Below the pieces are notes generated by a model. It was not told the origin of the DNA. It made no database searches and worked only from the letters and a program-made list of their open reading frames with translations. Positions 3,229-47,346 of a DNA stretch of 64,000 bases are shown here, one piece after another (position 1 is the first letter of the stretch; each line of letters starts with the position of its first letter). The stretch covers positions 2,418,001-2,482,000 of the forward strand of contig NZ_OY762974.1 of NCBI RefSeq assembly GCF_963667135.1, given 5' to 3'. The position numbers and the translations under genes are program-made. Source of the stretch: an uncultured Macellibacteroides sp. (lineage in GTDB: Bacteria > Bacteroidota > Bacteroidia > Bacteroidales > Tannerellaceae).

Positions 3229-3255
3229 AATGTGAAGCTTGAACGATATTGCTTA

Positions 3256-3263: not shown

Positions 3264-3277
3264 CTATTTTTTCTCGA

Positions 3278-3892
3278 TTAACTTTCTTCCCCTTTTAATA
3301 CTGGAACACTAATGTGATATTTTACGGCAATTATCCGGGTAAGGAATACACTTACTGCTGTGATAAATTGAATTATCGGCGACGATAATCCCGTAAATGT
3401 ACAGAGGTAATAAATTATTCCTCCCAGTACGCAGGCAAGGGCGTAAATATCTTTTCTGAAAATAAGAGGGACTTCATTAATTAAAATATCACGTAACATT
3501 CCCCCAAAAGATCCGGTTATGGTCCCCATTACAATGGCAACCCACATAGGAAACCCAAATTCAAGTGTTTTTACTATGCCGACAACGGCAAAAAGACCAA
3601 GTCCAATAGCATCAAATATGAAAAATGTGTTGGTTAGTCTGATTACAAATTTTCGAAAAATGATTACAAACAGGAGGGCTAGTGCAGATACTGTAAGGTA
3701 GGATGTCTGTTCCATCCAGAAAGGTGTTGCGTTAAGTAAAATATCGCGTAAAGTTCCACCGCCCACTGCCGTAACCAGACCGATTACGTAGGCACCAAAC
3801 CAGTCAAATTTCTTGGCAGAAGCCAGGCGAATGCCGCTAATGGCAAAGGCGAAAGTCCCTGAGTAATCACAAAGGGTAATGAAATCTATCAT
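3278..3892 (-). CDS. TRIC-like (UPF0126/YicG) membrane protein
   Basis: 204 residues with about seven hydrophobic segments. It contains the two glycine-rich repeats of the UPF0126 family: GLVTAVGGGTLRDILL near residue 40 and TGSFGGMLRDILINEVPLIF near residue 125. Prokaryotic members of this family have been shown to form trimeric cation (K+) channels in the inner membrane. It is a single gene with its own start, not obviously part of the ansA operon. Confidence 0.88.
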   Translation of the reverse strand: MIDFITLCDYSGTFAFAISGIRLASAKKFDWFGAYVIGLVTAVGGGTLRDILLNATPFWMEQTSYLTVSALALLFVIIFRKFVIRLTNTFFIFDAIGLGLFAVVGIVKTLEFGFPMWVAIVMGTITGSFGGMLRDILINEVPLIFRKDIYALACVLGGIIYYLCTFTGLSSPIIQFITAVSVFLTRIIAVKYHISVPVLKGEES

Positions 3893-4083
3893 TTTGTTGT
3901 TGCGTTATTGTGTTTTTTGTTTGCAAAAGTAACTATATTTTAGATGCGAATCGTACAGATATATGTAAGAATGTAACTTATTTAAAAATTGGAAGTGCTT
4001 TTGTCATTCTTTTGTGATGAGTTTTTTGTCAATAAATGTTATATATATATAGGTTCGCGGCTAATAGTAAACCAGGAATAAAA

Positions 4084-5559
4084 ATGAAGAAATGGTTCAT
4101 AATCATTCTGTTGCTGAGCGTTTTTATTCAGGAATTAAGATCACAGCAGCTTTTAAGGTCAGATTTGCCTGACTATAAGGAAGACTCGATCTGCTTTCTG
4201 CCGAAAAGACCATGGGTGGCGGCTACAGAAATCTGGGGATTGAATATGCTTGTATGGATGGGAAATCGTTACATCGCCAATCAACCCTATGCTTATATTG
4301 ATTTTACTACGATCAAAGATAATTTTAAAACTGCGCCTGTTTGGGATACCGATTTGTTTTCGACAAATATGATTGCTCATCCTTACCAAGGGGGGCTTTA
4401 TTATAACGCTGCCAGAAGTAGCGGTTATAATGTGTGGCAATCGGCAGCGTTTAATGTTGCAGGGAATTTTATGTGGGAATATTTTATGGAAAACGAATAT
4501 CCTTCCATAAATGATATGTTTACAACTACGTTTGCCGGCGTTGAATTGGGTGAAATAAGCTTTCGTCTTTCCGATTTATTTATCGACGACCGTTCCACTG
4601 GCTCCGAGAGGATTGGAAGAGAGGTTCTTGTCTCCCTGGTTTCACCCATGCGCGGATTTAACCGTCTTATTTCTGGTGATTCATGGAAACGACGTTCGTT
4701 TAAAGGTCGGTCTGTCCGATCTGTTCCTGTTGTTTTTGGGGCCAATCTGGGCCCCCGCTTTTTTACTGAACAGAATAATCTAAATAAGGGAAGCATGAGC
4801 ATGCAATTGAATTTTTATGTAGATTACGGTGATGCTTTAAGTGAAGAAGGGTTTTTACTGTACGATTGGTTTAAGCTAAGGGCAGGTTTTGACTTTTTTT
4901 CTTACGAACCTTTGCTGAACTATGTGAATGTGATTGGTGCTTTATGGGGGAAGCCGATTTGGAATAGGGGAGGTCAAACGATTTCAATGGGCGTGTTTCA
5001 ACACTTTGATTATTACGATTCTCAATTATCTTCTAAAAGTGTAGTAAATGTTCGACCTTATCATACATCCGAAGTAGCCGCTTTTGGATTAGGAATCTTA
5101 TACGGCAACCCTGCGGTTAAATTTGATAAAGTAGATTTTTATGCCAATTTCTATTTGACTGGTATAGCGCTGGGAACCAGTGTCTCTGATTATATGAAAG
5201 TTGGAGAGCGTGATTATAATATGGGAAGCGGATATAGTCTGAAGTTCTCTTCGAAATTAACTTACAATAAACATTGGTCAATATCGATAAATTTTGAAAA
5301 TTATCATATCTATTCATGGAAAGGATACAGCCCTGATTTGGATCTGGACGCCGTAGATCCCAGAACTTTTAATTATCAGGGAGATAAAAGTAATTCCTGT
5401 TTATCTGTATTATCAACGAACTTTGTATATAATTCTTCTCATAAATGGAACATAGCTTTAAGTAACAGCAGGTTTTTACGTAAAACAAATTATAAATATG
5501 AACCAGATATTGGCTATTCAACTTTTGATTTGATGTTAAGTTTGGGAATTCAACTCTAA
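4084..5559 (+). CDS. DUF3943 outer-membrane-associated protein, first of a tandem pair
   Basis: 491 residues from the ATG at 4084, chosen because it gives a clean signal peptide (MKKWFIIILLLSVFIQ, then a cut near RSQ). The DUF3943 core is recognisable from PWVAATEIWGLNMLVW through WDTDLFSTNMIAHPYQG, FMWEYFMENEYPSIND and LSDLFIDDRSTGSERIGRE. The C-terminal half alternates aromatic and polar residues and ends in LSLGIQL, consistent with a beta barrel. Function is unknown for the family; an outer-membrane place is inferred. The next gene is a close paralogue. Confidence 0.85.
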   Translation: MKKWFIIILLLSVFIQELRSQQLLRSDLPDYKEDSICFLPKRPWVAATEIWGLNMLVWMGNRYIANQPYAYIDFTTIKDNFKTAPVWDTDLFSTNMIAHPYQGGLYYNAARSSGYNVWQSAAFNVAGNFMWEYFMENEYPSINDMFTTTFAGVELGEISFRLSDLFIDDRSTGSERIGREVLVSLVSPMRGFNRLISGDSWKRRSFKGRSVRSVPVVFGANLGPRFFTEQNNLNKGSMSMQLNFYVDYGDALSEEGFLLYDWFKLRAGFDFFSYEPLLNYVNVIGALWGKPIWNRGGQTISMGVFQHFDYYDSQLSSKSVVNVRPYHTSEVAAFGLGILYGNPAVKFDKVDFYANFYLTGIALGTSVSDYMKVGERDYNMGSGYSLKFSSKLTYNKHWSISINFENYHIYSWKGYSPDLDLDAVDPRTFNYQGDKSNSCLSVLSTNFVYNSSHKWNIALSNSRFLRKTNYKYEPDIGYSTFDLMLSLGIQL

Positions 5560-31983: not shown

Positions 31984-33426
31984 ATGGTTCAGATTCGATA
32001 TAAACAGATAGTCCAGATGATAAACCTACCTATTTTGAGATCCCGGTTAAACAGATCCGGCGAAAAAGCTATTTACATCCAGATTGCAGACGAGATAATC
32101 GGGTGTATAAAGAAAGGTATACTTAACGCAGGCGAAACACTACCGGGTACCCGACTGATGGCAGCAGGGCTGAATGTAAACCGGAATACAGTTGTTCAGG
32201 CATTGGATGTTTTAATTAATGAGGGCTGGCTTATCTCTGAAGAACGGAAAAAAACATATGTTTCTGATAAAATACATCTATCTCAAACCCCGGACAGGAA
32301 CCCCGGACAGATCAAAACGAGAGAGGTTTTCGGTAAAGGACTGCTCTTTTTTGATGATGGTTTGCCGGATACCCAAAGTACCCCTATGGTCGAATTAGCC
32401 AGAGCGTATCGCCGTATTTTCAGTCGTAAGTCCCGGTGGCAAATTATGAATCTTGCAAGCGAGTTCGGAGATGAACAATTTAGAGAAACAATTTCTAATA
32501 TGCTCAATCAGAATCGCGGCATGCAAACATCTGCTTCTGAGGTATGCATAACGCGCGGAAGTCAGATGGCCCTGTTTTTAGCGGCACATTGTCTACTTAA
32601 AAGAGGCGACATCGTTTTAGTGGAAAATCCCGGATACAGCCCTGCCTGGAATACATTTAAGCATGCACAAGCAGATCTGATTCCTGTACCAGTCGATAAC
32701 GAGGGCATAGATGTTGATATGATCGAACGAATCGCAAAAAAACAATCGGTTAAAGCGGTTTATTTAACGCCGCATCACCAATATCCTACAACTGTAACAC
32801 TAAGTTTGCCGCGGCGGCTACAACTAATCGAATTGTCAAACCGATTTGGGTTTACGATTATTGAAGACGATTACGACAATGAATATCATTTTGGTCAGCG
32901 TCCCATTATGCCCGTATCTTCGCTCGAAGGGATACATAATTATATATATATTGGGACTTTAAGTAAATTAATAGCACCCACCATCCGAATCGGTTACATT
33001 GTAAGTTCACAGCAATTTATTGCAGCAGTCGGGGAATTGAGAAAAATTATAGATTTACAGGGCGATGCAATTATGGAGCAATCAATATTGGATTTGATGC
33101 AATCCGGAGATATTCGCAGACATCAAAAACGTATGTTAAGTCATTATCAGGAGAAAAGAGATTTCTTTGCAGATCTTATTGATAACTGCCTGAATGACAA
33201 AGTAACCTACAAAAAACCAGACGGTGGACTAGCGTTTTGGATAAAACCAGTGAAAGAGGTTGATTTATTCAAATTAAAAGAAAAAGCAAATTCAGAATTG
33301 CTGAGCTTCTACACTCCAGACCGATTTAGTTTTGACAAACCCGTTTTGGGATTACGAATTGGATATGCTTCATTATCTGAATCAAATATAGAAAAAGGGA
33401 TACATGTTTTAGAAAAGTTGTTATAA
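31984..33426 (+). CDS. MocR/PdxR-type GntR-aminotransferase regulator
   Basis: 480 residues. An N-terminal GntR winged helix (about 25-95, AIYIQIADEIIGCIKKG, ALDVLINEGWL) is joined to a fold type I aminotransferase domain with the PLP Lys in GTLSKLIAPTIRIGY. Such proteins sense PLP or an amino acid and control a neighbouring gene. Here the divergent gene is the PNPOx-like flavoprotein, its likely target. The start is uncertain; an ATG 12 codons downstream is possible. Confidence 0.9.
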   Translation: MVQIRYKQIVQMINLPILRSRLNRSGEKAIYIQIADEIIGCIKKGILNAGETLPGTRLMAAGLNVNRNTVVQALDVLINEGWLISEERKKTYVSDKIHLSQTPDRNPGQIKTREVFGKGLLFFDDGLPDTQSTPMVELARAYRRIFSRKSRWQIMNLASEFGDEQFRETISNMLNQNRGMQTSASEVCITRGSQMALFLAAHCLLKRGDIVLVENPGYSPAWNTFKHAQADLIPVPVDNEGIDVDMIERIAKKQSVKAVYLTPHHQYPTTVTLSLPRRLQLIELSNRFGFTIIEDDYDNEYHFGQRPIMPVSSLEGIHNYIYIGTLSKLIAPTIRIGYIVSSQQFIAAVGELRKIIDLQGDAIMEQSILDLMQSGDIRRHQKRMLSHYQEKRDFFADLIDNCLNDKVTYKKPDGGLAFWIKPVKEVDLFKLKEKANSELLSFYTPDRFSFDKPVLGLRIGYASLSESNIEKGIHVLEKLL

Positions 33427-34320: not shown

Positions 34321-34731
34321 ATGAAAAAGGTAAATTATTACTACATCACAGCAGGGCTATTTGCAATCCTTTTTTCGATAACACACGAATTAAATGGGCT
34401 ACAAAGAGTAATTCCTGCACTGTCATCTGGCGCATTAGATATTAGTGCTGTAACGACCATCAACTATATTTGGCATGTTATTACAGCCGAGAATTTTATT
34501 TTTGGTATTGCATTTATTATCATGGCATTCTATAGGGACAGGAAAAATGTAAGATTCTCAGCATGGTTGATTTGCTCGATTTTAATAACTCGACTATTTG
34601 TTATTGTAGGCACTACTTTAATAATGACAGGAGGACAAATAAATGATTTAATAATTGATATAATTGCAATAGTGATTTATACAGCAATAATCCTAGTAGG
34701 CACAAGAGCAAAAAGCGATAAAAAACGTTAG
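34321..34731 (+). CDS. Small integral membrane protein of unknown function
   Basis: 136 residues with four predicted helices (YYITAGLFAILFSITHELNG; FIFGIAFIIMAFYR; WLICSILITRLFVIVGTTLI; IIAIVIYTAIILVG). A His in helix 1 and another near the end of loop 1 (YIWHVITAENF) are the only polar residues that stand out. No family recognised. Divergent from the PAS-LuxR regulator, which may control it. Confidence 0.7.
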   Translation: MKKVNYYYITAGLFAILFSITHELNGLQRVIPALSSGALDISAVTTINYIWHVITAENFIFGIAFIIMAFYRDRKNVRFSAWLICSILITRLFVIVGTTLIMTGGQINDLIIDIIAIVIYTAIILVGTRAKSDKKR

Positions 34732-34794
34732 CCATTTGATAATATTTAACCTTATCCCAAATCTTCAATGATTATATTTCAGGGATTAGACACC

Positions 34795-35322
34795 TCAAAC
34801 GATTTTCTCGTATAGTTTGAACCAATCTAGTCCGTAGTTACCATATCCCAAATCTACGGTATCTATGTATTCAAAGCCGCATTTTTCGTACAGCGAGATT
34901 GCCGGAAGGTTTTTCTCGTACACATCCAAACGAATGGACTTCATGCCTGTCTGTCGGGCCAGCTCAAACGAATAGTCCATCAATGCACGACCAATGCCCA
35001 TTTTAAGAAATGAGGGATGCACCACAAAAGTACGTATCACAAAAATGCAACTGTAGTCTGCATCAACCTTCCATTTTACACCATTATAGGCTTCATCGGG
35101 ATAGTGGTCTAAGATAATAGATCCAGCAATCTTACCTTCGTGTCTTACAACGAAAAGGTTATTATCTTGTATGCCAATAACCGCATTTTCACGAATAGGA
35201 TAGATGCCTTTTATCCATCCGGGATAATTAGTAGTAGCCGATAGATAGTCATTCAGATCATCATACAGCATTTCCAATTCGTCAATATCGGCAGGAGTGC
35301 TGGATTCTATTACAAACTTCAT
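34795..35322 (-). CDS. GNAT-family N-acetyltransferase
   Basis: 175 residues. The acetyl-CoA motif is FVVHPSFLKMGIGRALMDY, with the later strand SIRLDVYEKNLPAISLYEKCGFEYIDTV. Substrate unknown. Single gene. Confidence 0.87.
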   Translation of the reverse strand: MKFVIESSTPADIDELEMLYDDLNDYLSATTNYPGWIKGIYPIRENAVIGIQDNNLFVVRHEGKIAGSIILDHYPDEAYNGVKWKVDADYSCIFVIRTFVVHPSFLKMGIGRALMDYSFELARQTGMKSIRLDVYEKNLPAISLYEKCGFEYIDTVDLGYGNYGLDWFKLYEKIV

Positions 35323-35375
35323 AATTACAACTGTTTGGGATGCAAAGATATTATTCGGGATAATCTATTTATCTT

Positions 35376-35801
35376 TCATTTCAAACTCTTTTTAGAACGG
35401 ACAACGGTCAACAAGTCCTTAAGTTGGTTTTCGTTGTTCACCTCGATAACCATCGGAAGCAGCCGTCCGGTAGGTTCTTCACAGGCAAACTTATTTTTGA
35501 CCGTTTCCGAAATATCCAATGCCGCAATTGCTTCGAGGTGCTTTTCTGTGAAAAAGAAACTCACCTTGAAAAAGCCTTCCCACACCGAAAGCCACAAAAC
35601 GGTTTTCTTTTTGTGTTGCACCTTACCAAGCCACGCTTTACCATCATTATAGTATCTCCATTCAAAGCTCAGTACGTACTCTTCATTTGTAATCGTTCCG
35701 AGAAAAGAATCCAACACATTATAAACGTCTCCAAGCGCATCTTTCAAAACCTTGTCAGACGGGAAAGTGTCCGCATTCCGCAATAACATTTGTGCTTCCA
35801 T
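35376..35801 (-). CDS. DUF3788 family protein (intact copy)
   Basis: 141 residues with the family pattern: NVLDSFLGTITNEEYVLSFEWRYYNDGKAWLGK-type opening (in parts), WLSVWEGFFKVSFFFTEKHLEAI, CEEPTGRLLPMVIEVNNENQL. Function unknown. Its 3' end and about 20 bp beyond also occur, diverged and deleted, at 31028-31171. Confidence 0.8.
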   Translation of the reverse strand: MEAQMLLRNADTFPSDKVLKDALGDVYNVLDSFLGTITNEEYVLSFEWRYYNDGKAWLGKVQHKKKTVLWLSVWEGFFKVSFFFTEKHLEAIAALDISETVKNKFACEEPTGRLLPMVIEVNNENQLKDLLTVVRSKKSLK

Positions 35802-35820: not shown

Positions 35821-36966
35821 TTATTTAATTTTCATGTTTTCAATTAAAGGGGTCGAATCAATAAGCTCTAACTCTTGCACCATATCGAGTGTACCTTGTT
35901 TGTATTTAAGAAAATGAGGTGTTTTGATATGACTTTGATATGCCTCTTCGTTTGCATATATTTCAAGAATTGTAATTCTGTTCGGACGTTCTTTTTCGAA
36001 CGTAGCGTATAAAGTCAGCACCCCCGGTTCAAGACGCATCGACGACTCTATCTCGTCTTTCAGATAGGCATTATATTCGTTCAAACGAGCCTGATCAACC
36101 ACAATTTTAGCCAGACGTACTTTTTGACTACCGGTTATTGTATCAGGTTCTTTCGTTTCTTGAATTATTCGGAGGGTTTTCATTGCTGCAGGAAATCCAA
36201 TATAAGGTAAACATTGGATCACTACCGATGTTAGCGTCGATTTATCGTTACCCAGTTTTATATTGCTTAATGTATGCGAACGAAGCTGACTATCAGCTTC
36301 AAGAGTTGTTATTACAGCATAGACAAGTAATTCTTTGGTTTTAAGATCCAATCCGCCACGTGTATATATGTCGCCAAAACCATACTCAGTAAGAAAACGG
36401 GCAACATCATACCCTAAACCATCCGGCAAATCTTTTAAAGCCTTTTTAATCGCATCTCCATAAAGAGGCTGCTGGATTTCTGCCCCTTTTGTACCTCGAT
36501 TCTGCTCGTTAACCATCCCCTGCTTTTCCAACGGAAGAGCAATGCCTCGTTCTTTGAAAACCTCATTTGCCGTAGCGAGTGCATTAAGTGTTTTAGGAAA
36601 ACCAATAAAAGGAGCGCACAAATAGATTGATTCACGAACCTCGATAGGTGTTATTCCAATGTTAAGTGATGCACCAATGTGGGCCTTCAACTGCGGTAAA
36701 GTTTGCATAGTTGTAAGCGTTACACAGGTAATCATTTCACGTGTTTTAATGTCCAGATTCCCTGTTTGAAACACCTCTCCAAAAATAAATTTTTGAAGTA
36801 AATCCATCATTTCAGGATCGGTACCTTGTCCGCTTAAAGCTTCTCCACCAAATAATGCAGCGTAATTTTTTTTACACAATTCGATTCTATCCATTTTATT
36901 TTCTTGTGTGAAAACGGGTACTACTGTAATGAACAGTAATACCAAAGTTACTACTATTTTTTTCAT
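35821..36966 (-). CDS. Secreted CMD-CMD-ABM fusion protein
   Basis: 381 residues from ATG 36966, chosen for its signal peptide (MKKIVVTLVLLFITVV). Two carboxymuconolactone-decarboxylase-like domains follow (residues about 30-140 and 165-265), then an antibiotic-biosynthesis-monooxygenase-like domain (RLAKIVVDQARLNEYNAYL; LTLYATFEKERPNRITILEIY). No CxxC redox pair of AhpD type is seen. A periplasmic place and the triple fusion are unusual. It lies 16 bp after the aldo/keto reductase and is probably cotranscribed. Confidence 0.82.
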   Translation of the reverse strand: MKKIVVTLVLLFITVVPVFTQENKMDRIELCKKNYAALFGGEALSGQGTDPEMMDLLQKFIFGEVFQTGNLDIKTREMITCVTLTTMQTLPQLKAHIGASLNIGITPIEVRESIYLCAPFIGFPKTLNALATANEVFKERGIALPLEKQGMVNEQNRGTKGAEIQQPLYGDAIKKALKDLPDGLGYDVARFLTEYGFGDIYTRGGLDLKTKELLVYAVITTLEADSQLRSHTLSNIKLGNDKSTLTSVVIQCLPYIGFPAAMKTLRIIQETKEPDTITGSQKVRLAKIVVDQARLNEYNAYLKDEIESSMRLEPGVLTLYATFEKERPNRITILEIYANEEAYQSHIKTPHFLKYKQGTLDMVQELELIDSTPLIENMKIK

Positions 36967-36982
36967 GCAATACGATTTCCCG

Positions 36983-38104
<1,122 letters not shown>

Positions 38105-38381
38105 AACCCAATTTTTTCGATTTACCTGTTTATACTCTATACGCAACTTTCTCCAGTCCTTATTTTTCAACGTTTCTCAGCAGATATTCCGGGCGTCATT
38201 CTCCGTGTCATTTACTGATAGTAAGTAGATAATGCAAAATTAAGAATTTCATTGGGGGGGCACTTATACAGATTACGGTTTTACTTATAAAAATTACTGA
38301 TTAACAGTATTATATGTCGAAACATTGTATAGCTACGTGTATTGATCAAATACACAGATTTAAATGTTTAGAGGTCAATTC

Positions 38382-38473
38382 GCCAAATCAACAAGCAAAA
38401 CGTTGCCAAATCAGGAAGTATAAATCAGCCAAACAGGGAAGTGAAATTATGCCAAACTAGGAATTTATTAGCA
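38382..38473 (+). repeat. Four 23-bp direct repeats
   Basis: Units start at 38382, 38405, 38428 and 38451, an exact 23-bp period. Each begins GCCAAA; units 2 and 3 go on with a purine-rich GGAAGT element, unit 1 has CAAG and unit 4 has GGAAT there. The array lies 40 bp before the -7 box of the ATPase gene. Period 23 is not a multiple of three, so it is not coding; it looks like an operator array or a small repeat remnant. Confidence 0.75.
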
Positions 38474-38513
38474 GATTTATACGGTAAAACACTTGATTTT
38501 AAGATATTTAATT

Positions 38514-38521
38514 TATATTTG
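38514..38521 (+). promoter_or_regulatory. -7 box of the DUF4143 ATPase gene
   Basis: TATATTTG, 28 bp before the ATG; a CTTG 18 bp upstream is a weak -33 box. Confidence 0.55.
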
Positions 38522-38548
38522 CAATAGAATATTACATAATTGTTGATT

Positions 38549-39820
38549 ATGCAGATAAAAGACTATTATCCAAGAATCGTAGACAAACTTCTTGATTTGC
38601 AACTACAAGCCTCTGGAGCAGTGCTTATAGAAGGTGCCAAGTGGATTGGAAAAACCTATACAGGTAGAGTAAAAGCCAGTAGTGTGTTGTATATGCAAGA
38701 CACAGACCATTCGGCTTCGTATTTGAAATTGGCCGAAACGCAACCTTCTCTTTTGCTAAGGGGAGAGATACCCCGATTATTGGATGAATGGCAAGAAGCC
38801 CCTGTGTTATGGGATGCGGTTCGTTTCGCAACAGACCAGCGAGGCGAGATGGGACAATTTATTTTGACAGGCTCTGCCGTCCCGAGTGACAGTGAGACCA
38901 AACATACGGGTACCGGTCGTATTGCCAGAGTGCTCATGCGTCCCATGAGTTTGTATGAGTCGAAAGAGTCTAGCGGTGATGTTTCGCTGAAGTCATTGTT
39001 TGATGGTGTTGAAACGGTAGAAGGATTTAATCACATTACTATTGAGCAAATGGCATTTATACTTTGCCGGGGGGGGTGGCCAGCAGCAGTTAAACAGACG
39101 AATGAAAAAGTGGCTTTACAAACCGCCCGAAACTATGTGATACAGGTTTCTGAACACGATATTCAACGAGTGGATGGTACGGAAAAGAATCCTGACCGTG
39201 TGCGTCTTGTTTTACGCTCATTGGCCCGCAACATTTCCACTATGGCGACTATACAAACAATCAAGGCAGATATTGAAGCCAATGATAGTATGGTCTCTGA
39301 TAAAACTATTGCTAACTATATCAATGCCCTTCGCCGAATTTATGTAGTAGAGGATATTCCAGCATGGCAACCTTCCTTACGTTCTAAAACGGCAATTCGT
39401 ACATCAAGCAAGCGTCAGTTTGTAGACCCCTCAATAGGATTGGCAGCATTGCGCGCCAATCCAGAAAGCATATTAAAAGACTTCAACTCATTCGGTTTCT
39501 TCTTTGAATCCTTGTGTACTCGTGATATGCGTGTATATGCAGCTGCCAATGATGGCGAAATCTATCATTACCGAGACAAAAGTAATTTAGAAAGCGATTT
39601 GATTATCCGGCTTTACGATGGTCGATGGGCTCCTGTAGAAGTTAAGTTAGGATCAAAGGATATTGAACAAGCAGCCAAGCATTTGCTTGAATTAAAGGCT
39701 AAGATTGATACCACGAAAGTAGGTGAACCATCTTTCATGATGATTCTCACAGGTGGGCAATTTGCTTATCGCCGTGAAGACGGTGTTTATGTGGTGCCAA
39801 TTGGCTGCCTGAAAGATTAG
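38549..39820 (+). CDS. AAA ATPase with DUF4143
   Basis: 423 residues from ATG 38549. Walker A reads GAKWIGKTYT (Gly29-Thr36), Walker B LLDEWQ, and sensor region LTGSAVPSDSETKHTGTGRI. The C-terminal DUF4143 region ends with an endonuclease-like PD-ExK stretch (ESDLIIRLYDGRWAPVEVKLG). This family is widespread, often mobile, and of unknown role. The four 23-bp repeats in front of it may be its operator. Confidence 0.86.
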   Translation: MQIKDYYPRIVDKLLDLQLQASGAVLIEGAKWIGKTYTGRVKASSVLYMQDTDHSASYLKLAETQPSLLLRGEIPRLLDEWQEAPVLWDAVRFATDQRGEMGQFILTGSAVPSDSETKHTGTGRIARVLMRPMSLYESKESSGDVSLKSLFDGVETVEGFNHITIEQMAFILCRGGWPAAVKQTNEKVALQTARNYVIQVSEHDIQRVDGTEKNPDRVRLVLRSLARNISTMATIQTIKADIEANDSMVSDKTIANYINALRRIYVVEDIPAWQPSLRSKTAIRTSSKRQFVDPSIGLAALRANPESILKDFNSFGFFFESLCTRDMRVYAAANDGEIYHYRDKSNLESDLIIRLYDGRWAPVEVKLGSKDIEQAAKHLLELKAKIDTTKVGEPSFMMILTGGQFAYRREDGVYVVPIGCLKD

Positions 39821-39943
39821 GGACGAGGGTGTCGAGGCTAACAATATCCAACCAAAACGAATTAATGTCGTTTTAATCTGTCACCTATCATATAAGGTGT
39901 CAGAACCCTTTGCTGGTCAGGGTTGGGCGGGTGAGAGATGCCT

Positions 39944-39985
39944 GGTGACGGATGCGAAAGATCTCTCATCTGTCACCTTTTTATT
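39944..39985 (+). terminator. Terminator of the DUF4143 ATPase gene
   Basis: GGTGACGGATG / CATCTGTCACC hairpin (one G-T pair) with a 12-nt loop, followed by TTTTTATTTT. It reaches to the stop of the convergent HU-like gene. Confidence 0.8.
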
Positions 39986-40582
39986 TTAGGCACGCAGCAT
40001 GTATAACACATTCTTTCCGGAACCCAGTTTCTCTACCTTCTCCGCTTCAATAAGCAGATGCAGGTCCTGCAAAGCGATGTAGCGGGAACACTGATTCACG
40101 CGCATACAATCGGTGCTGTTGGCCGTGCGATGGTCCTTAAGGTAAGCAAGAATACGCAGCAAACGTTCTTCGCCGGCATATTCATTCTTCTTTTCGGCAG
40201 GCACACGTTCCAGCTTCATTGATTTTAAGGTCGCTTTCATTTTTTGCGAGCAACGGAAATTTACACTTTTAAAGTGAACCGACTCGGACCGTATCTGCTT
40301 GTCGCTGGTAACATCTTTGGGGCAACCCAGCGAAACCGAGTAACTCCCCAGTCCCTCCAGATTTACATTCTCTCCATTTTTGAGGCGACTGCCTACTACT
40401 TGTGTAAAACTAGCCAGCAACCCTTTGATATCGCCCAGCGAAAACGACGACATTGTGGAAATTTCGGCAGCCAGGTCATCGATGGTTGCCGTACGTGAAG
40501 GCACAATACGCGCATGCAAGGCAGTAACGCCGTTCTTTGCAGCAGCAGGAGGATTCTCAATCAACTTATATTTAGCACTCAT
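39986..40582 (-). CDS. HU/IHF-like DNA-binding protein with C-terminal winged-helix extension
   Basis: 198 residues, twice the length of plain HU. Residues 1-130 follow the Bacteroidota HU-like pattern (HARIVPSRTATIDDLAAEIS, LKNGENVNLEGLGSYSVS). The rest is a winged-helix-like domain (LLRILAYLKDHRTANSTDCMRV). Such proteins are chromosomal in many Bacteroides and often sit next to prophage- or VapE-like genes, none of which is here. Its leader, about 185 nt if the -7 box at 40767 is used, contains a large palindrome. Confidence 0.83.
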   Translation of the reverse strand: MSAKYKLIENPPAAAKNGVTALHARIVPSRTATIDDLAAEISTMSSFSLGDIKGLLASFTQVVGSRLKNGENVNLEGLGSYSVSLGCPKDVTSDKQIRSESVHFKSVNFRCSQKMKATLKSMKLERVPAEKKNEYAGEERLLRILAYLKDHRTANSTDCMRVNQCSRYIALQDLHLLIEAEKVEKLGSGKNVLYMLRA

Positions 40583-40634
40583 TAAACGATAAAGTATTAG
40601 AAAGTATTAAGTAAACTAACGCAAAGACTTAAAT

Positions 40635-40758
40635 CAAGTATTCGTTTTCCAATTGACAAACGCAAAGTCAACATATGGATACCTTACGTTTGCAATATGT
40701 TGAACGCAAGATATCCATATCGCAAACGGAAAGTATCCAATTGTCAAACGAATACTTG
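40635..40758. repeat. 124-nt imperfect palindrome in the leader of the HU-like gene
   Basis: The arms align without gaps: 13 outer bases (CAAGTATTCGTTT) are perfect, 18 of the first 20 match, and a second matching block (ATGGATACCT against ATGGATATCT and adjacent bases) lies near the centre. The middle of each arm does not pair. An alternative small hairpin uses TCAACATAT / ATATGTTGA. Many AACGCAAA-like words occur in it. Confidence 0.7.
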
Positions 40759-40766
40759 TTCGTAGG

Positions 40767-40774
40767 CAAAGATA
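40767..40774 (-). promoter_or_regulatory. -7 box of the HU-like gene
   Basis: TATCTTTG on the minus strand. If used, transcription starts before the palindrome and the whole of it would be in the RNA. Confidence 0.5.
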
Positions 40775-40922
40775 TAAAAGTATATGGTGAAAATGCTACT
40801 TTACAGGATATAAATAGCAAATGACTCTATTCTTTTTCCGGAATCCATCGGTTAGTTTCTTCTGTTTTGGAGAGTACTTTATGTACTCCTTTTTATATTC
40901 TTATATTATATATAATGATAGA

Positions 40923-41043
40923 GCGTTAGGTTTGCGTCAGGTTTGCGTTAGGGTTGTGTAACGGAATCTCTCAAAAGCCTCACGGGTGCAGGGTTCTGAG
41001 CGTTCAGTTTGCGTCAGGTTTGCGTCAGGTTTGCGTTCGGCTA
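40923..41043 (+). repeat. Two clusters of 11-bp direct repeats (iteron-like)
   Basis: The unit is GCGT(T/C)AGGTTT. Starts are at 40923, 40934, 40945, 40956 and at 41000, 41011, 41022, 41033. The two clusters are 77 bp apart, exactly seven units, so all eight starts share one 11-bp register. The last unit of each cluster is degenerate. No replication gene is near. Confidence 0.8.
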
Positions 41044-41130
41044 ATTTTTCAGCATATTTATTGCCTCTTTCGATAATAAAAACCCTTGTTTTTAATCAAT
41101 TGATATGTCTTGTATTGTTAAAATAATCGC

Positions 41131-41138
41131 TACATTTG
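41131..41138 (+). promoter_or_regulatory. -7 box before the DUF1016 remnant
   Basis: TACATTTG with CTTG 18 bp upstream, 39 bp before the small ORF at 41177. Fits the Bacteroidota promoter pattern. Confidence 0.5.
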
Positions 41139-41176
41139 AAGACAGAAAGTAAGAATAGTATTGTTGATGGTTTACT

Positions 41177-41275
41177 ATGGATGATGAAGACGATTTTAAC
41201 TTTGAAGAACGTTTTGCCGAACAGATCAAAGAAGAACAACGGCTTAATGCTTTTATTTTTGGAGAATCTGGCTAA
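41177..41275 (+). CDS. Very small acidic ORF, doubtful
   Basis: 32 residues (DDEDDFNFEERFAEQIKEEQ...), strongly acidic with a helical pattern. It follows a good -7 box and precedes the DUF1016 remnant by 20 bp. It could be a true small protein or the head of a broken gene. No family recognised. Confidence 0.35.
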   Translation: MDDEDDFNFEERFAEQIKEEQRLNAFIFGESG

Positions 41276-41297
41276 AATAAAAATGGAGAAATAATGA

Positions 41298-41636
41298 ACA
41301 AACTTAATCGTATACAAAACATGGGGTCGGCAGATACCAGGATACCGAAAGCTGCTTTCGGTCGAAAATGAGCAAGCTCGCATGTGGTATATGAATGAGG
41401 CAGCCAACGAAAACTGGTCGATCCGACAACTTAACAGGCAAATTTCAGTGCTTTACTTCGAAAGGTTTTTATCCAGTACCACTCCGGAGGCTGTGAAAAA
41501 GGAAGCCGTTGAACTTTTAGGAAAACCAACTCCCGAAGAATTCATTCGGAATCCTTATATTTTGAATTTCATGGATCTCAAAACCGAAGCATCTTATTTT
41601 GAGAAAGATATCGAGCAAGGGTTAATATGCAATTAG
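41298..41636 (+). pseudogene. Remnant of a DUF1016 (YhcG-type) nuclease
   Basis: The 113-codon frame has no proper start but reads YRKLLSVENEQARMWYMNEA, NENWSIRQLNRQISVLYFER, and PEEFIRNPYILNFMDL, the N-terminal domain of DUF1016 proteins. It ends at EASYFEKDIEQGLI just before the PD-(D/E)xK nuclease domain, which is missing. The gene is thus truncated at both ends and surely inactive as a nuclease. Confidence 0.8.
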
Positions 41637-41705
41637 TCGGCCTATTATAAGTTAGCAACTTTGGAAAAGTGATTGTGTGAGGGTTGCGATACCTTTGCCG
41701 CAGAG

Positions 41706-42569
41706 ATGGAAAAGAAAAAGTTAACAACACAGGAAGATTACAGGAAGCGTGTCGATCAGGTAACAGAATATATCCGTGAACACCTTGATTGTGAAATTGA
41801 TATTCGGACACTTGCCAAGCTATCGGCATTTTCTCCGTTTCACTTTCATCGCGTTATGCGTGGTTATTTGGGCGAACCTATTGGGGCGTTTATCGTGCGC
41901 ACAAGGGTGCAGGCGGCTGCTAATCTATTACGTTACACCGAATTATCGGTGTCTGAAATTGCTTATCGGGTGGGTTATGACACTCCGTCATCGCTAACTA
42001 AATCTTTCTGCAAACTTTTTGGCATCTCTCCAAAAGAGTATCGTCTAACTAAAAATTATCAGATTATGACAACACAATCACCAAAAACAGAGGTTAAACT
42101 CAGCCGTACCAAAATTGTGGAGCTGGAACCGAAAACAGTTCTTTACATCAGTGCATCGGGAAGTTACAAGAATGTCGAGTACGGCACACTATATGAACGT
42201 ATGTGGGCAGAGGTAAAACGGCAGGGCCTATTTTCGGCAGGGATCGAACACTTGGCTTTTTATTACGACAATCCAGAAATCGCTACCGAAGAGAATTTAA
42301 AATGCGATGTCTGCTTGCGAGTATGTAAGCAGGCAGAACCTAACGGAGATATTGGAGTCAAAGCCATTTGCGGCGGACGTTTTGCAATGTTCACCTACAT
42401 TGGTGAATACAACAAAGTGGGTGCGGCTTACGATAAAATTTACGGTGAGTTACTCGCAATAGGCGGTTTTCAGGCACGAGGTAACTACTGTTTCGAAAAA
42501 TATGTGAGCGACCCTCGTCGTACCGCTCCAGAGAAGCTAAAAACAGAGATTTATATTCCGATTGAATAG
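41706..42569 (+). CDS. AraC-family regulator with GyrI-like effector domain
   Basis: 287 residues from ATG 41706. The N-terminal double HTH (KRVDQVTEYIREHLDCEIDI, FHFHRVMRGYLGEPIGAFI, SVSEIAYRVGYDTPSSLTKSF) is followed by a GyrI-like small-molecule domain (residues about 125-287, RTKIVELEPKTVLYISASGS, KAICGGRFAMFTYIGEY). MarA/Rob-like; probably binds an organic cation. Single gene ending in a strong terminator. Confidence 0.88.
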   Translation: MEKKKLTTQEDYRKRVDQVTEYIREHLDCEIDIRTLAKLSAFSPFHFHRVMRGYLGEPIGAFIVRTRVQAAANLLRYTELSVSEIAYRVGYDTPSSLTKSFCKLFGISPKEYRLTKNYQIMTTQSPKTEVKLSRTKIVELEPKTVLYISASGSYKNVEYGTLYERMWAEVKRQGLFSAGIEHLAFYYDNPEIATEENLKCDVCLRVCKQAEPNGDIGVKAICGGRFAMFTYIGEYNKVGAAYDKIYGELLAIGGFQARGNYCFEKYVSDPRRTAPEKLKTEIYIPIE

Positions 42570-42704
42570 CTTTTATTGGTTTCGTCCTGTAAAAAAAGCT
42601 TTTATGAGTAGCTCTTCCTGTGGATATCTTTGCGTTTATAGAAAGTGTTCTTCTTCGCTCTTTGATGACATTTCCTAGTAGCTATCGGGTATTATTTAAT
42701 AAGT

Positions 42705-42749
42705 AAGGTTGCAAGATTTTAGATTGCACATCCAAAATCTTGCAACCTT
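42705..42749. terminator. Long hairpin terminator between convergent genes
   Basis: Perfect 16-bp stem AAGGTTGCAAGATTTT / AAAATCTTGCAACCTT with a 13-nt loop. It serves the AraC-GyrI gene and the convergent barrel gene. Confidence 0.75.
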
Positions 42750-42787
42750 TAATTTATATCATAAATAACAAAATTATGGCACTTTAT

Positions 42788-43462
42788 TTAGAACTTGTAT
42801 CCAATGCCAATTATAAGACTTCGGCTCCTTAAGGCATTGCCCATTTTTCCATAACCATTCCACACCTTATTGAATCCAAAATCATATGCTCCGTGGCAAA
42901 TAATATTACCGGCCTCGATATTTAATCCGGATCGTACTCCATAATCCCAACGTTCGAAGGCTGTTACAGTCGTTTGCGCCCAATCATTAAACTTTTCGTC
43001 TTTAAATGGATTCCAGCTGTTATCTGCAAACCGAAATACTTCTTCTGCTTCAAAATTTATGGATTTAATCTCACTATGACCATGTAAACCATACGAAACA
43101 AAAATACCTACATTAGGAATTAGTCTGATATTGTTCCCAATAGGAATTTTATATCCTAAAGATAGTGGAAGTTCCAGATATGATAGTTGGACATCGAACA
43201 TTTTCAACTGCTGAGAATAGTTCAAATCGCTCCACAATCCGTTTACACCTTTAACCACGTATCCCAGTCCGCTTAAAAGAGTTAAGTCTTCATTTAACTT
43301 GTAATTGCATAGCACACCAATCTGTATACCTGTTTTACTTTTAGCAAAATTTTCAGAAAGGGTTGATGAAGTTATAGATGCATTAACTCCAAACGAAACT
43401 TGGCCGTGGCATAAAATACTAAAGAAACATCCTAAAATTACACATAATATACTTTTTCTCAT
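42788..43462 (-). CDS. Outer-membrane beta-barrel protein (PorT-like)
   Basis: 224 residues with a signal peptide (MRKSILCVILGCFFSILCHGQ) and alternating strands (VSFGVNASITSSTLSENF, GIQIGVLCNYKLNEDLTLLS, LSYLELPLSLGYKIPIG) ending in LIIGIGYKF. The pattern is that of the outer-membrane beta-barrel domain common in Bacteroidota. Function unknown. Confidence 0.8.
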   Translation of the reverse strand: MRKSILCVILGCFFSILCHGQVSFGVNASITSSTLSENFAKSKTGIQIGVLCNYKLNEDLTLLSGLGYVVKGVNGLWSDLNYSQQLKMFDVQLSYLELPLSLGYKIPIGNNIRLIPNVGIFVSYGLHGHSEIKSINFEAEEVFRFADNSWNPFKDEKFNDWAQTTVTAFERWDYGVRSGLNIEAGNIICHGAYDFGFNKVWNGYGKMGNALRSRSLIIGIGYKF

Positions 43463-43888
43463 TGTTGGAAGATTTAGTGTGTAGTAAATAATTAATAGAT
43501 TGACCCATATAAATCTTAAAAATCATATATTTGATTTTGATATTCTGTTACAATTCTATGTTGACATGTTGGTCCCATATCTGGAGCTGGATGATTTTCC
43601 CACTCTAAAAACTCTTTACCCGTTTTCACGACTATCATTTGAAAACAAATTTTCTTCATTATTACAAGAAGATAAAATTAGTGAAATCAAAAATAGAAAA
43701 AAATAGTTTTGTTTCATGGTTTCTTTTTTTAGAGTTAATAATTACTTTTATGAGTATGATTTGTAAAAGAGAAGATAATGAGTTTAATTAGTTATCTAAT
43801 GACGTGCTTTTTATTTAACAAAACAAATATAGTCAGTTATCATTAATTAATATATCATAAATATGGTTAATTGATAGTTTGATAAATG
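43463..43888. other. AT-rich intergenic stretch, no convincing gene
   Basis: A plus frame starting with TTG at 43500 is open for 68 codons but shows no family pattern and lacks a promoter. The rest is very AT-rich. Confidence 0.3.
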
Positions 43889-44032
43889 TTAATTAATAAC
43901 AAAGTCCTTTAAAGTGATGTAATCCAATTCTACCGGTTTGTTCAATGCAGCAACATACGTCCCAAACTCCTTAATTTTTTCTATGAATACAGCCGGTTCT
44001 ACTACAACAAGTCCCTTTTTCCCTCCAATGTT
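43889..44032 (-). pseudogene. C-terminal fragment of an unknown protein
   Basis: 47 codons without a start: GGKKGLVVVEPAVFIEKIKE, then FGTYVAALNKPVELDYITL, then KDFVIN and a stop. A stop codon lies right before it and the 5' part is missing, the flavin reductase promoter being there instead. It reads like a protein C-terminus, but no family is recognised. Confidence 0.35.
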
Positions 44033-44046
44033 TTAGTTATTATACG

Positions 44047-44054
44047 TACATTTG
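44047..44054 (+). promoter_or_regulatory. -7 box of the flavin reductase gene
   Basis: TACATTTG, 27 bp before the ATG; upstream a TTTTAG is a poor -33 box. Confidence 0.55.
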
Positions 44055-44080
44055 CAAGTAGAATTCAAACAGTAAAAATC

Positions 44081-44596
44081 ATGAACAGTTTTAAGGAAAT
44101 AAAAACAAAAGACCTGAACATCAGTGCTTTTGATCTCAAAAACAAATGGATGTTGGTTACCGCTTCGAAACCGGATGGTACAGTAAATACGATGACTGCC
44201 AATTGGGGTGGTTTTGGCTATCTGTGGAATAAAGAGGTTGTTTTCGTTTTTATACGTCCACAACGCTTTACCAAGGAGTTTGTTGATGCCTCCGATTCTT
44301 TCACTTTGACATTTTTTGCCGACGAATATAAAAAGAGTGCCTTGGCTTATCTAGGTAAAGCATCTGGCAGAGATGAAGATAAAATAGGAAAAACAGGTCT
44401 TACTATCGCTAAGAATGAGGATGGAATACCCTATTTTGAAGAAGCAGAATCCGTTTTATTCGTTAAAAAGTTATACATGCAACCAATGGCTGCGGAGCAC
44501 TTTCTGGAAAAAGAAATTATCGATCAATGGTTCCCCGGGGGAGATTTTCATGAATTGTATATTGCAGAAATAAGCAAGGTGTTGACTAAGTGCTAA
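44081..44596 (+). CDS. Flavin reductase-like FMN-binding protein
   Basis: 171 residues. Split-barrel markers: NKWMLVTASKPDGTVNTMTANWGG, VFVFIRPQRFTKEFVDASDSFTLTF in parts, and YLGKASGRDEDKIGKTGL. Binds FMN and probably reduces it or moves its electrons. 26 bp before the S9 peptidase, so the two may share a transcript. Confidence 0.86.
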   Translation: MNSFKEIKTKDLNISAFDLKNKWMLVTASKPDGTVNTMTANWGGFGYLWNKEVVFVFIRPQRFTKEFVDASDSFTLTFFADEYKKSALAYLGKASGRDEDKIGKTGLTIAKNEDGIPYFEEAESVLFVKKLYMQPMAAEHFLEKEIIDQWFPGGDFHELYIAEISKVLTKC

Positions 44597-44622
44597 TTAT
44601 TGTAGGAGATAAATAAAGTAAA

Positions 44623-47346
44623 ATGAAAGTATTGAGGTTGTTTTTCCTTATAGTCCCCTTTATAAGTGCTTGTACTATGTTGCAGGCGCAAGTTACAAAG
44701 AAAACCCTGACATGGGATGATGTGGTAAGCTGGAAACAGATTACCGATAAAGCTGTTTCGGATAACGGGAAATGGGTATTCTGTAAAATGGCACCGTGGC
44801 GTGGTGATGCTACCGTTTATTTGTATAATGAAATGGGAGAGGAGAAGGCTACGTTTCAATCGGCAGAAGGGGCTTCCTTTTCATCTTCTTCTCAGTTTTT
44901 AGTTGTTACAGAGAAGCCTGCACTTAAGGTTACGGAAGAGCTTAAACTGAAAAAGACCAAAGAAGAGAATATGCCGATGAATAAGCTTGTGATTTATAAT
45001 CTGCAGGCTAACGAAAAAGAGGTTATCGATTCAATAAGGTCCTTTAAATTGTCGGAAACGGCCGATTGGCTTGCCTATCAGCGAGGAAGTAAAGCGGATT
45101 CTGCGCTCTATGTCCGCGCGTTGGATGGTTCTAAAACTGTTTCATTTGCTACGGTTACAGATTTTGGTTTTGCAAAGAAAGGGAATGTTTTATTCTATAC
45201 CTCTGCCGGATCTGATAAACAAGAGAAGAAGGAAACAGCTGGCTTGTTTACTTACGCTCCCGAAAATGGCAGTACCCTGCTTTATGATGGTAAAGGCGTT
45301 TTTAAAAATGTATCTTTCGATGAGAAAGGAGATAAATTAGCTTTTCTTTATTGTGCCGACAAAGATTCTGCTGCTACAGGTCTTTCTCTCTATATTTCGG
45401 AAAAGAATGCCATGGCTCGTTTAATAGCGGACCGTAAAAATTCTGCGTTCCCGGCTGGGTGGGTGATTAGTGAAAACGAAAATATTCGTTTTTCTGCTAA
45501 TTCAGGTCGTTTATTTTTTGGTACTGCTCCCGAACCGAAGCAAAAGGATACGACGATGTTGTCCGAAAACCGGCCCAATGTACAGGTTTGGAACTGGAAT
45601 GAAGGAGTGCAGTATACACAACAGCTAAATGACAAAGCGAAAGAGTTGAAGAGGACTTACACGGCTGTCTTTAACCTTAAGAGCAATAAGATCTATCAAC
45701 TGGCAACAATCGATATGCCCGATTTGAAAGTAGCGGACGAAGGAAATGCTCCGCTTGCTTTGCTCACTTCCTCGAAGGCTTACGAAAAAGAAAGCATGTG
45801 GAAGGGTAGCAACCGGGTGGATATTTACCGGATAAATATGGACAATGGGATTCGTGTGCAGATTAAGAGTGCAGCCAACAGTTCGATGCAATTATCGCCA
45901 AAAGGGTATTATGCTTACTGGTATAGTGCTCAGGATAGTTCCTGGTATACGTACGGAATGGACAGCGGAAAGGAATACCGTCTCACTACGCCCGGCAGTT
46001 TTACTGCATGGGATGAGGATAATGATGTGCCCGATTATCCCAGTCCGTATGGTTTGGCAGGTTGGACAACGGACGACAAGGCGCTGCTTATTTACGACCG
46101 CTATGATATCTGGCGATTTGATCCTTCGGCAGTGAAAGCTCCCGTAAACCTTACCGTAAACGGAAAGAAGGAAAAACTTACCTATCGTAGGGTAAAATTG
46201 GATACAGAAGAGAAGTCGGTCGACAGTAACAAAGACCAGTTCCTTACAAGCTTCAATGAATCAACCAAAGGCTCCGGCTATTATAATACGCGTTTCACGG
46301 CCCCCGCAGTACCCGGGGAGTTGCTTGCGGGTAACTTTATGCTGCAAACTCCCTTAAAAGCAAAGAAGGCGGATGTGGTGCTGTATACTACCGAAACATT
46401 CGGACAGTATCCTGATTTACAGTTGGCCGATCTCGGTTTTAAGAAGAGTGTGCAACTTACGCACGGAGCTGATCAGCAGGCTGGTTTTAACTGGGGAACA
46501 GCCGAACTGGTAACCTGGACATCGTTAGATGGTCGTCCGCTTGAAGGGGTGGTTTACAAACCCGAAAACTTTGATCCGTCAAAGAAATATCCTGTTATTG
46601 TAAATTTCTACGAACGTAATGCCGAGACATTATACTCTTATCGTATGCCGGAAGCACACCGATCCACGATAGATTATCATTTTTATACCAGCAACGGATA
46701 CATTGTTTTCAATCCCGATATTCGGTATAAAGATGGATATCCCGGCGAAAGCTGCTTCAATAGTGTAATGCCGGGAATTGCTTCGCTCATAGAGAAAGGA
46801 TATGTTAACGAGAAGGCAATTGCTGCCCAGGGACATAGCTGGGGTGGATACCAGGTTGCTTATCTGGCTACACGCACCAATCTGTTCGCAGCTATCGAAT
46901 CCGGCGCTCCGGTTGTAAATATGCTTAGTGCTTACGGAGGTATTCGTTGGAGCACAGGTTTGAATCGTTCTTTTCAATACGAGCATGGGCAGAGCCGTAT
47001 AGGCGGAACTATTTGGGATACGCCGCTCCGTTACATGGAGAATTCTCCGCTTTTGACCATGGATAAGGTGCAGACTCCTATTCTGATTATGCACAACGAC
47101 AATGACGGACATGTGCCATGGTACCAGGGAATCGAATATTTTGTGGCGCTTAAACGCTTACAGAAACCTGCATGGTTGCTTAATTATACCGGCGAGGTTC
47201 ACTGGCCATCCCGATTAGCCAATAAAATTGATTTCCAGAAAAGGATGTATCAGTTTTTTGAACATTACCTCAGAAACCAACCTATGCCCTTATGGATGAG
47301 CCAGGGAATCCCGGCTGTAGACCAAGAGTTTGAATTAGGGTATTAA
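44623..47346 (+). CDS. S9-family prolyl oligopeptidase-like peptidase
   Basis: 907 residues with a signal peptide ending near MLQAQ. The N-terminal two thirds form a beta-propeller-like part. The C-terminal alpha/beta hydrolase has the nucleophile in GHSWGGYQVAYLA, Asp in NDNDGHVPW, and His in GEVHWPSR. Periplasmic; cleaves short peptides, probably as a dipeptidyl peptidase-like enzyme. It is longer than most DPP IV-type enzymes (about 700-750). Its terminator lies inside the end of the convergent gene. Confidence 0.9.
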   Translation: MKVLRLFFLIVPFISACTMLQAQVTKKTLTWDDVVSWKQITDKAVSDNGKWVFCKMAPWRGDATVYLYNEMGEEKATFQSAEGASFSSSSQFLVVTEKPALKVTEELKLKKTKEENMPMNKLVIYNLQANEKEVIDSIRSFKLSETADWLAYQRGSKADSALYVRALDGSKTVSFATVTDFGFAKKGNVLFYTSAGSDKQEKKETAGLFTYAPENGSTLLYDGKGVFKNVSFDEKGDKLAFLYCADKDSAATGLSLYISEKNAMARLIADRKNSAFPAGWVISENENIRFSANSGRLFFGTAPEPKQKDTTMLSENRPNVQVWNWNEGVQYTQQLNDKAKELKRTYTAVFNLKSNKIYQLATIDMPDLKVADEGNAPLALLTSSKAYEKESMWKGSNRVDIYRINMDNGIRVQIKSAANSSMQLSPKGYYAYWYSAQDSSWYTYGMDSGKEYRLTTPGSFTAWDEDNDVPDYPSPYGLAGWTTDDKALLIYDRYDIWRFDPSAVKAPVNLTVNGKKEKLTYRRVKLDTEEKSVDSNKDQFLTSFNESTKGSGYYNTRFTAPAVPGELLAGNFMLQTPLKAKKADVVLYTTETFGQYPDLQLADLGFKKSVQLTHGADQQAGFNWGTAELVTWTSLDGRPLEGVVYKPENFDPSKKYPVIVNFYERNAETLYSYRMPEAHRSTIDYHFYTSNGYIVFNPDIRYKDGYPGESCFNSVMPGIASLIEKGYVNEKAIAAQGHSWGGYQVAYLATRTNLFAAIESGAPVVNMLSAYGGIRWSTGLNRSFQYEHGQSRIGGTIWDTPLRYMENSPLLTMDKVQTPILIMHNDNDGHVPWYQGIEYFVALKRLQKPAWLLNYTGEVHWPSRLANKIDFQKRMYQFFEHYLRNQPMPLWMSQGIPAVDQEFELGY

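What the first reader, a model, noticed from the sequence alone, without database searches (positions are those of the whole stretch)
40923..41043. Two iteron-like clusters sharing one 11-bp register
Eight copies of GCGT(T/C)AGGTTT-type units lie in two groups of four, 77 bp (7 x 11) apart, so all are close to one face of the helix. Nothing annotated explains this. Placed between the HU-like gene and a decayed nuclease, it may be a protein-binding array, an origin remnant of a lost element, or the operator of a lost divergent gene.
Basis: partly seen in the sequence, partly recalled or inferred. Interest (0 to 1): 0.75.

Follow-up and report, generated by a model that had tools for sequence, protein, structure and literature searches.

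The report
Orphan iteron array from replication module
The repeats are a real, conserved DNA site of a kind that, in related loci, sits just in front of a small DNA-replication gene set beside capsule or defence genes; in this window the site stands without those partner genes.

Summary
The array is real: six good and two weak 11-bp units in two clusters 77 bp apart, the only strong lag-11 signals in the 64 kb, 0 of 200 shuffles. Related arrays lie at three more places in this chromosome and at the orthologous locus of a sister species, each behind an AT-rich block. One copy (D) directly precedes a DnaD/lambda-O-like winged-helix gene, then DnaB and DnaG. Searching by that gene, DnaB accompanies it in 35 of 45 loci, an AT block precedes it in 38 of 39, and paired clusters of 11/12-bp units recur, also in held-out loci. 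Units are private to a locus but shared by its two clusters (0 of 20,000 permutations). Best reading: iterons plus AT block of an island replication module, orphaned here. Origin activity is inferred, not shown; an operator is the main rival. Against: 8 of 10 arrays found by DNA model lack the winged-helix gene, and 17 of 38 loci show no significant repeat singly. HU-like neighbours are frequent, not constant. 'One helix face' fails: 77 bp is 7.3 turns.

The parts
40872..40894 (+). terminator-like hairpin (GAGTAC-TTTAT-GTACTC) with T-run
   Evidence: sequence; kept in copies B, C, D, with one A-T to C-G exchange of both sides in D; termination not tested
40890..40921 (+). AT-rich block, unwinding-element-like by position and composition
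   Evidence: sequence; kept in four copies; AT block of 18/20 or more upstream of 38 of 39 winged-helix genes against 76 of 270 other genes
40923..40966 (+). cluster 1: three good 11-bp units and one weak
40967..40999 (+). spacer between the clusters, partly conserved (..CAAAAGCC..GGGTGCAGGGTTCTGA)
   Evidence: alignment of four copies; no consistent hairpin over the wider family
41000..41043 (+). cluster 2: three good 11-bp units and one weak
41110..41138 (+). promoter-like TTG..N..TACATTTG downstream of the array, with counterparts in B and G026
   Evidence: by eye and the alignment ends; the Bacteroides promoter consensus is recalled
39986..40582 (-). HU-HIG gene, 198 aa, pointing away from the array
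   Evidence: PF18291 1.8e-31; TIGR01201; duplicated with the array in B and C
41382..41636 (+). fragment of a DUF1016/YhcG-type nuclease, unrelated to the array
   Evidence: PF17761 and PF06250 below their cut-offs

Best explanation
The array is the cis-acting site of a chromosomal replication-type module: an AT-rich block followed by two clusters of 11-bp iterons, which the module's own winged-helix (DnaD/lambda-O-like) initiator would bind so that the AT block opens and the DnaB and DnaG encoded next to it are loaded. Shown: relatedness of this site to the one before such an operon in the same chromosome (D); the recurring architecture; units private to a locus and shared by its two clusters; absence of the module genes in the window. 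Inferred: that the winged-helix protein binds the units, that the AT block unwinds, that synthesis starts there. The window copy is an orphan: a relic, or a site still used in trans by D, whose units are nearly the same.
For: D: array about 80 bp before a winged-helix gene with PHROG matches to DnaD-like loaders and O-like initiators (2.6e-9 to 1.3e-3), then DnaB (PF03796 1e-58) and DnaG-type primase. DnaB in 35 of 45 winged-helix loci (13 of 17; 5 of 6; 16 of 20; D; L057 none). AT block 38 of 39 against 76 of 270. Mean lag signal at 12 and 11 in 18 loci outside G000 (z 1.70, 1.19; null 99% of the maximum 0.71) and at 12, 55, 56 in 20 held-out loci (1.78, 1.27, 1.17; null 99% 0.74). Clusters of a locus share units: 8.69 against 5.38 letters between loci, 0 of 20,000 permutations, 39 loci; without G000 8.00 against 5.37, n=33. 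Units change by exact 11-bp steps between copies. Orphan and winged-helix-linked arrays share units within a genome twice: A/B with D in G000, G014:C1 with G014:C155 (by eye).
Against: No binding or replication data. The wider loci were found by the winged-helix gene, so its presence there is by selection; of the ten arrays found by the DNA model that I judge real, only two (D, G014:C155) have it downstream. 17 of 38 winged-helix loci show no significant repeat on their own; in held-out loci lag 11 alone (0.59) is below the null line and 12 leads. A DnaA box (TTWTNCACA) lies in 400 bp upstream of only 4 of 39. The fold model gives only generic winged helices, no match at E 0.001 or better. Orphans C and G026 have no module with matching units among those I read.
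Confidence: 0.55

Rival explanations
1. Operator only: the winged-helix protein regulates its own operon by binding the repeats; no replication starts there. The window copy is an operator left behind.
For: Same position upstream of the gene; winged-helix domain also resembles Crp/MarR-type domains; Foldseek finds transcription regulators; it and the origin reading are compatible.
Against: The operon encodes helicase and primase; two spaced clusters with a strongly AT-rich block are more than an operator needs.
Confidence: 0.25
2. A dispersed regulatory or architectural array bound by an HU-HIG or another host protein, independent of the module.
For: HU-HIG genes are near A, B, C, D and G026 and in the stretch of 15 of 23 further loci; 8 of 10 DNA-found arrays lack the winged-helix gene; G014:C1, C60 and G015:C28, C32 lie between ordinary genes.
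Against: A and C have 96% identical HU proteins but different units; only 3 of 12 such HU genes in G000 have a model-detected array; private units fit a locus-specific binder better.
Confidence: 0.12
3. Neutral tandem repeat made and kept by replication slippage.
For: Copy number changes by whole units between copies; unit sequence differs between loci.
Against: Slippage does not spread a unit across a spacer of about 33 bp or more, yet the two clusters share units; the same two-cluster architecture recurs with unrelated units.
Confidence: 0.05

Closest known systems
oriV of the chromosomal island SGI1 (PMC7433901; passages seen)
   Same: Iterons and AT-rich DNA beside a rep gene on a chromosomal island
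   Different: There four 17-bp iterons, a DnaA box, downstream of rep; here two clusters of 11/12-bp units upstream of a winged-helix gene followed by DnaB and DnaG, DnaA boxes rare
Origin of the phage satellite PLE with RepA_N initiator (PMC7145576; passages seen)
   Same: Satellite element with own initiator and repeats; winged-helix-type initiator domain (a chain titled 'Structure of initiator', 4pt7, is hit 28 of the fold search, E 0.012; that it is a staphylococcal RepA is recalled)
   Different: Semi-palindromic longer iterons there; no sequence match of our protein to RepA_N was seen in Pfam
Phage lambda origin with O and P (recalled)
   Same: O-like winged helix, iterons beside an AT-rich stretch, DnaB loading
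   Different: Lambda iterons lie inside O (recalled); here upstream, with own helicase and primase genes; no tblastn match of the D protein in 50,697 phage records, a weak test for a protein this diverged

Membership tests
Iteron-type replication origin | Several direct repeats of one unit at the site | tested here: met
   Window. Over the family as a mean effect; singly 21 of 38 winged-helix loci at p 0.025 or less in one of two tests
Iteron-type replication origin | Adjacent AT-rich unwinding-type region | tested here: met
   Window 40890-40921; 38 of 39 loci against 76 of 270 genes, controls not matched for intergenic position
Iteron-type replication origin | Linked initiator gene | tested here: inconclusive
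   Met for D and G014:C155; not met for the window: no winged-helix remnant in 36001-46000, best E 1.3
Iteron-type replication origin | DnaA box (common in such origins, not in all; recalled) | tested here: not met
   4 of 39 loci with TTWTNCACA within 400 bp upstream
Iteron-type replication origin | Initiator binds the repeats and replication starts there | not testable with these tools
   needs bench work
DnaD/O-like initiator or loader | Sequence match to DnaD-like loader or O-like families | tested here: met
   phrog_186, 2514, 270, 391, 428 and others, E 2.6e-9 to 3.7e-3; no NCBIfam match
DnaD/O-like initiator or loader | Fold beyond a generic winged helix | tested here: inconclusive
   Model mean pLDDT 78; Foldseek best hits are CRP, CodY, HlyU, none at E 0.001 or better
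HU-bound array | Constant HU neighbour and HU binding | tested here: inconclusive
   Frequent, not constant; binding not tested

The most novel reading that the evidence does not exclude
This bacterial family carries several chromosomal initiator-helicase-primase modules per genome (six winged-helix genes in G000, eight each in G026 and G040) at capsule and defence islands, each with its own private iteron code, so that islands replicate or amplify independently; orphan arrays such as the window's are satellite origins that a full module of the same code drives in trans (D for A and B in G000; G014:C155 for G014:C1).
Probability: 0.2. Interest if true: 0.87.

Novelty: new variant of a known kind. 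Interest (0 to 1): 0.6.

Why it matters
If right, capsule and restriction or toxin islands in this family carry their own replication start machinery with locus-private recognition sequences, which would give a testable mechanism for how such islands move, multiply and stay distinct, and would give an unexplained repeat a named partner protein. My searches of the held library (result listings only) showed no description of such a module; that library lacks most subscription journals.

Tried and rejected
HU-HIG as the constant partner: frequent but not constant. A hairpin in the spacer: noticed by eye, but a scan gave no consistent stem over the collected loci; dropped. RNA leader: the array folds no better than shuffles (z +0.48); Rfam gives one match far below its gathering score, on the neighbouring palindrome. 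Plasmid or phage source: no tblastn match of the D winged-helix protein at E 0.01 (weak test); D's DnaB matches 1,247 plasmid and 1,620 phage records, all below 60% identity, the listed rows at 28-33%. Viral contigs were not scanned. Initiator remnant beside orphans A, B, C, G026, G014:C1, G015:C32 (best E 1.3) and G014:C60, G015:C28 (best E 1.6): none. Order-wide profile search: 22 of 295 genomes; outside the family I read only L081, L083, L085 upstream regions, larger proteins, no such array visible. G124 match: 32 bp of AT-rich DNA, no array seen. Structural second look unavailable.

Corrections made on checking. Of the eleven R1 places outside G000, six are arrays by eye (G026; G014:C1, C60, C155; G015:C28, C32), one is unclear (G013), four are not (G057 and G048 lie in fully open frames; G103 and G009 show no units). 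So clear arrays are in 4 of 123 family genomes by this model. (2) The inside-gene control is not at null: 0.84 at lag 87 against a null maximum of 0.81; it shows nothing among its listed top lags at 11, 12 or 55-57. (3) HU neighbours are commoner than I first wrote.

Selection to declare: I examined 45 of the 53 places; not examined: G024, G002:C83, two of G029, G055, G046:1575390, G120:C97, G036. The 'held-out' loci were printed before the test, which had been fixed in its main form; three of the 20 are from G000, and several share genomes with the first set. Dropped as near-duplicates there: L108, L111, L143, L152, L158, L159. Dropped: these, plus L142, L153, L156 (no clear AT block), L026, B and the G014:C1 orphan. 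In one search: the six, L026, B and G014:C1. In one search the control genes include those within operons, so the contrast is generous. One search counts DnaB anywhere in the fetched stretch; within 5.5 kb downstream on the same strand. No control was run for how often capsule or defence genes flank arbitrary loci. Capsule flanks were confirmed by Pfam for D and chosen proteins of L063, L067, L069, L071; the rest are read by eye.

Full report
WHAT IS THERE. The window is 2,418,001-2,482,000 of one 4.46-Mb contig. Between a minus-strand HU-HIG gene (39986-40582) and a fragment of a DUF1016/YhcG nuclease (41382-41636) lie, reading along the plus strand, a terminator-like hairpin with T-run (40872-40894), an AT-rich block (40890-40921), a first cluster of 11-bp units (40923-40966), a spacer, and a second cluster (41000-41043). 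Six units match GCGTCAGGTTT at 8-11 of 11 positions, the last of each cluster at 5 and 7. TRF, shuffles (0 of 200) and the lag scan of the whole window put this beyond chance. The clusters are 77 bp apart, 7.33 turns at 10.5 bp, so not on one face.

COPIES IN THE SAME GENOME. Pattern search, DNA search and a sequence model R1 made from the four copies give four places: A (window), B at 2,837 kb, C at 2,720 kb, D at 704 kb. A and B share 1,311 bp at 94% including the HU gene; C shares 777 bp (94%, HU part) and 425 bp (89%, array part), which are separated in C by a transposase-like ORF (by eye); D shares only 201 bp (79%), the array with its AT block. Cluster 2 of B and cluster 1 of C are each one unit shorter, an exact 11-bp gap.

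WHAT D SHOWS. In D (L012) the array lies about 80 bp before a winged-helix gene whose protein matches PHROGs of DnaD-like loaders and O-like initiators (2.6e-9 and weaker); then DnaB (PF03796, 1e-58) and a DnaG-type primase (Zn_ribbon_DnaG 1.4e-23, Toprim) on the same strand. On the other side are two genes without Pfam match, DUF4248, a divergent HU-HIG gene, a glucosaminidase and a polysaccharide synthesis gene.

THE MODULE IN RELATIVES. The D protein finds relatives in 15 of 123 family genomes; an 18-member profile finds 53 places in 22 of 123 at E 1e-10, six in G000 and eight each in G026 and G040. I examined 45 of the 53. DnaB is present in 35 of 45 (13 of 17, D, 5 of 6, 16 of 20, L057 none). 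HU-HIG genes lie in the fetched stretch of 10 of 17 and 5 of 6. An AT block (18 or more of 20 A/T, 75-270 bp before the start) is present in 38 of 39 non-redundant loci against 76 of 270 other genes; at 19 of 20 the counts are 26 of 39 and 37 of 270.

REPEATS IN RELATIVES. Upstream regions show paired clusters of short units whose sequence differs by locus. Averaged over 18 loci outside G000, lags 12 and 11 stand out (mean z 1.70, 1.19; null 99% of the maximum 0.71), then 57, 69, 80 (0.98, 0.91, 0.82). In 20 held-out non-redundant loci lags 12, 55 and 56 stand out (1.78, 1.27, 1.17; null 99% 0.74), while 78 (0.66) and 11 (0.59) stay below the line. Controls 900 bp upstream stay below (0.60 against 0.72); controls inside the gene reach 0.84 at lag 87 against 0.77, not at the array lags. 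Locus by locus 21 of 38 reach p 0.025 in one of two tests, 17 do not. The two clusters of one locus share units: mean longest common word 8.69 within against 5.38 between loci, 0 of 20,000 permutations over 39 loci (these include A, C, D and two orphans); without G000 8.00 against 5.37, n=33, 0 of 20,000. Units private to a locus yet common to two separated clusters are what sites for one cognate protein would look like.

ORPHANS. The loci above were found by the winged-helix gene, so its presence there proves nothing; the DNA model R1 is the unbiased side. Outside G000 it gives eleven places in eight genomes: six are arrays (G026; G014:C1, C60, C155; G015:C28, C32), one is unclear, four are not. 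Of the ten real ones including G000, D and G014:C155 have the winged-helix gene downstream; A, B, C, G026, G014:C1, G014:C60, G015:C28 and G015:C32 have none by profile. In two genomes an orphan shares its units with a winged-helix-linked array: A/B with D, and G014:C1 with G014:C155 (GCGTTCAAGTT; by eye). That is the ground for the bolder reading, satellite sites served in trans. G015:C28 lies just upstream of a DnaB gene of its own (30% identical to D's).

CONSERVATION AND LOSS. In the sister species G026 the stretch 36983-41149 has its counterpart: the neighbouring reductase gene (81%), the HU part (75%) and the array part (69%), with two genes between HU and array and without the window's ATPase gene. 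Its units differ (GCGTGCACGAT, GCGACCACTTT) but the two-cluster layout is kept; lag 11 is significant, cluster sharing is not (p 0.003 and 0.106). G027, the same species by the tool's table, shows no array. The element is accessory.

SURROUNDINGS. Polysaccharide genes were confirmed beside D, L063, L067, L069 and L071. In G000, L107 and L108 carry type I restriction genes, L109 a HipA gene, L111 helicase/PLD genes with PADLOC matches; orphan B lies beside Vsr and a cytosine methylase, C beside HipA, G026 beside an AbiLi-like gene. No enrichment test was made.

MECHANISM. Most likely the initiator binds both clusters, the AT block opens, and the module's DnaB and DnaG are loaded; only anatomy and statistics support this. 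An autoregulatory operator explains position and pattern as well, though not the helicase and primase, and both may hold. The number of orphans and the frequent HU neighbour keep a host-protein reading alive.

KNOWN RELATIVES. SGI1 and PLE show that chromosomal islands can carry iteron origins; neither has this architecture. Paper searches listed nothing on such a module. Hence a new variant of a known kind, interest 0.6.

Noticed in passing
window 40585-40770: The leader of the HU-HIG gene is a long imperfect palindrome (RNA fold z -6.6) that is a dispersed repeat: 31 matches, about 19 places, in G000, also in G026 and G027. Of ten copies read, three have an ORF of 60 aa or more close behind (two are HU-HIG).
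   Followed up: partly
L012 7972-8490 (-) and counterparts: A gene of about 150-170 aa without Pfam match lies upstream of the array on the same strand in D and many modules; eleven of twelve candidates are linked to each other by BLASTP.
   Followed up: partly
window 34432-35464 and 32883-33087; L036 14447-15431 and 12543-12747: Further stretches of the window are duplicated beside copy C (93-98% identity), so A and C share pieces of one island.
   Followed up: no
window 38307-39853: The AAA/DUF4143 ATPase gene has no counterpart at the G026 locus, where the flanks are about 10 bp apart: a clean gain or loss next to the HU-array unit.
   Followed up: no
L017, L041, L052 (G014): A second repeat class of about 21 bp with GCTCCCG words lies on the far side of the array in G014 loci.
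   Followed up: no
L059 (G015:C28) 4554-4681 (-) and 2810-4324 (-): An orphan array sits directly upstream of a 504-aa DnaB gene followed by a Clp-like gene (by eye), in a genome without a winged-helix profile match.
   Followed up: partly
L077 4239-4829: The only named relative of the window's HU protein (68%) is on a short contig labelled Candidatus Izemoplasmatales, perhaps misbinned; palindromes precede it but no array is seen in 4.2 kb.
   Followed up: partly
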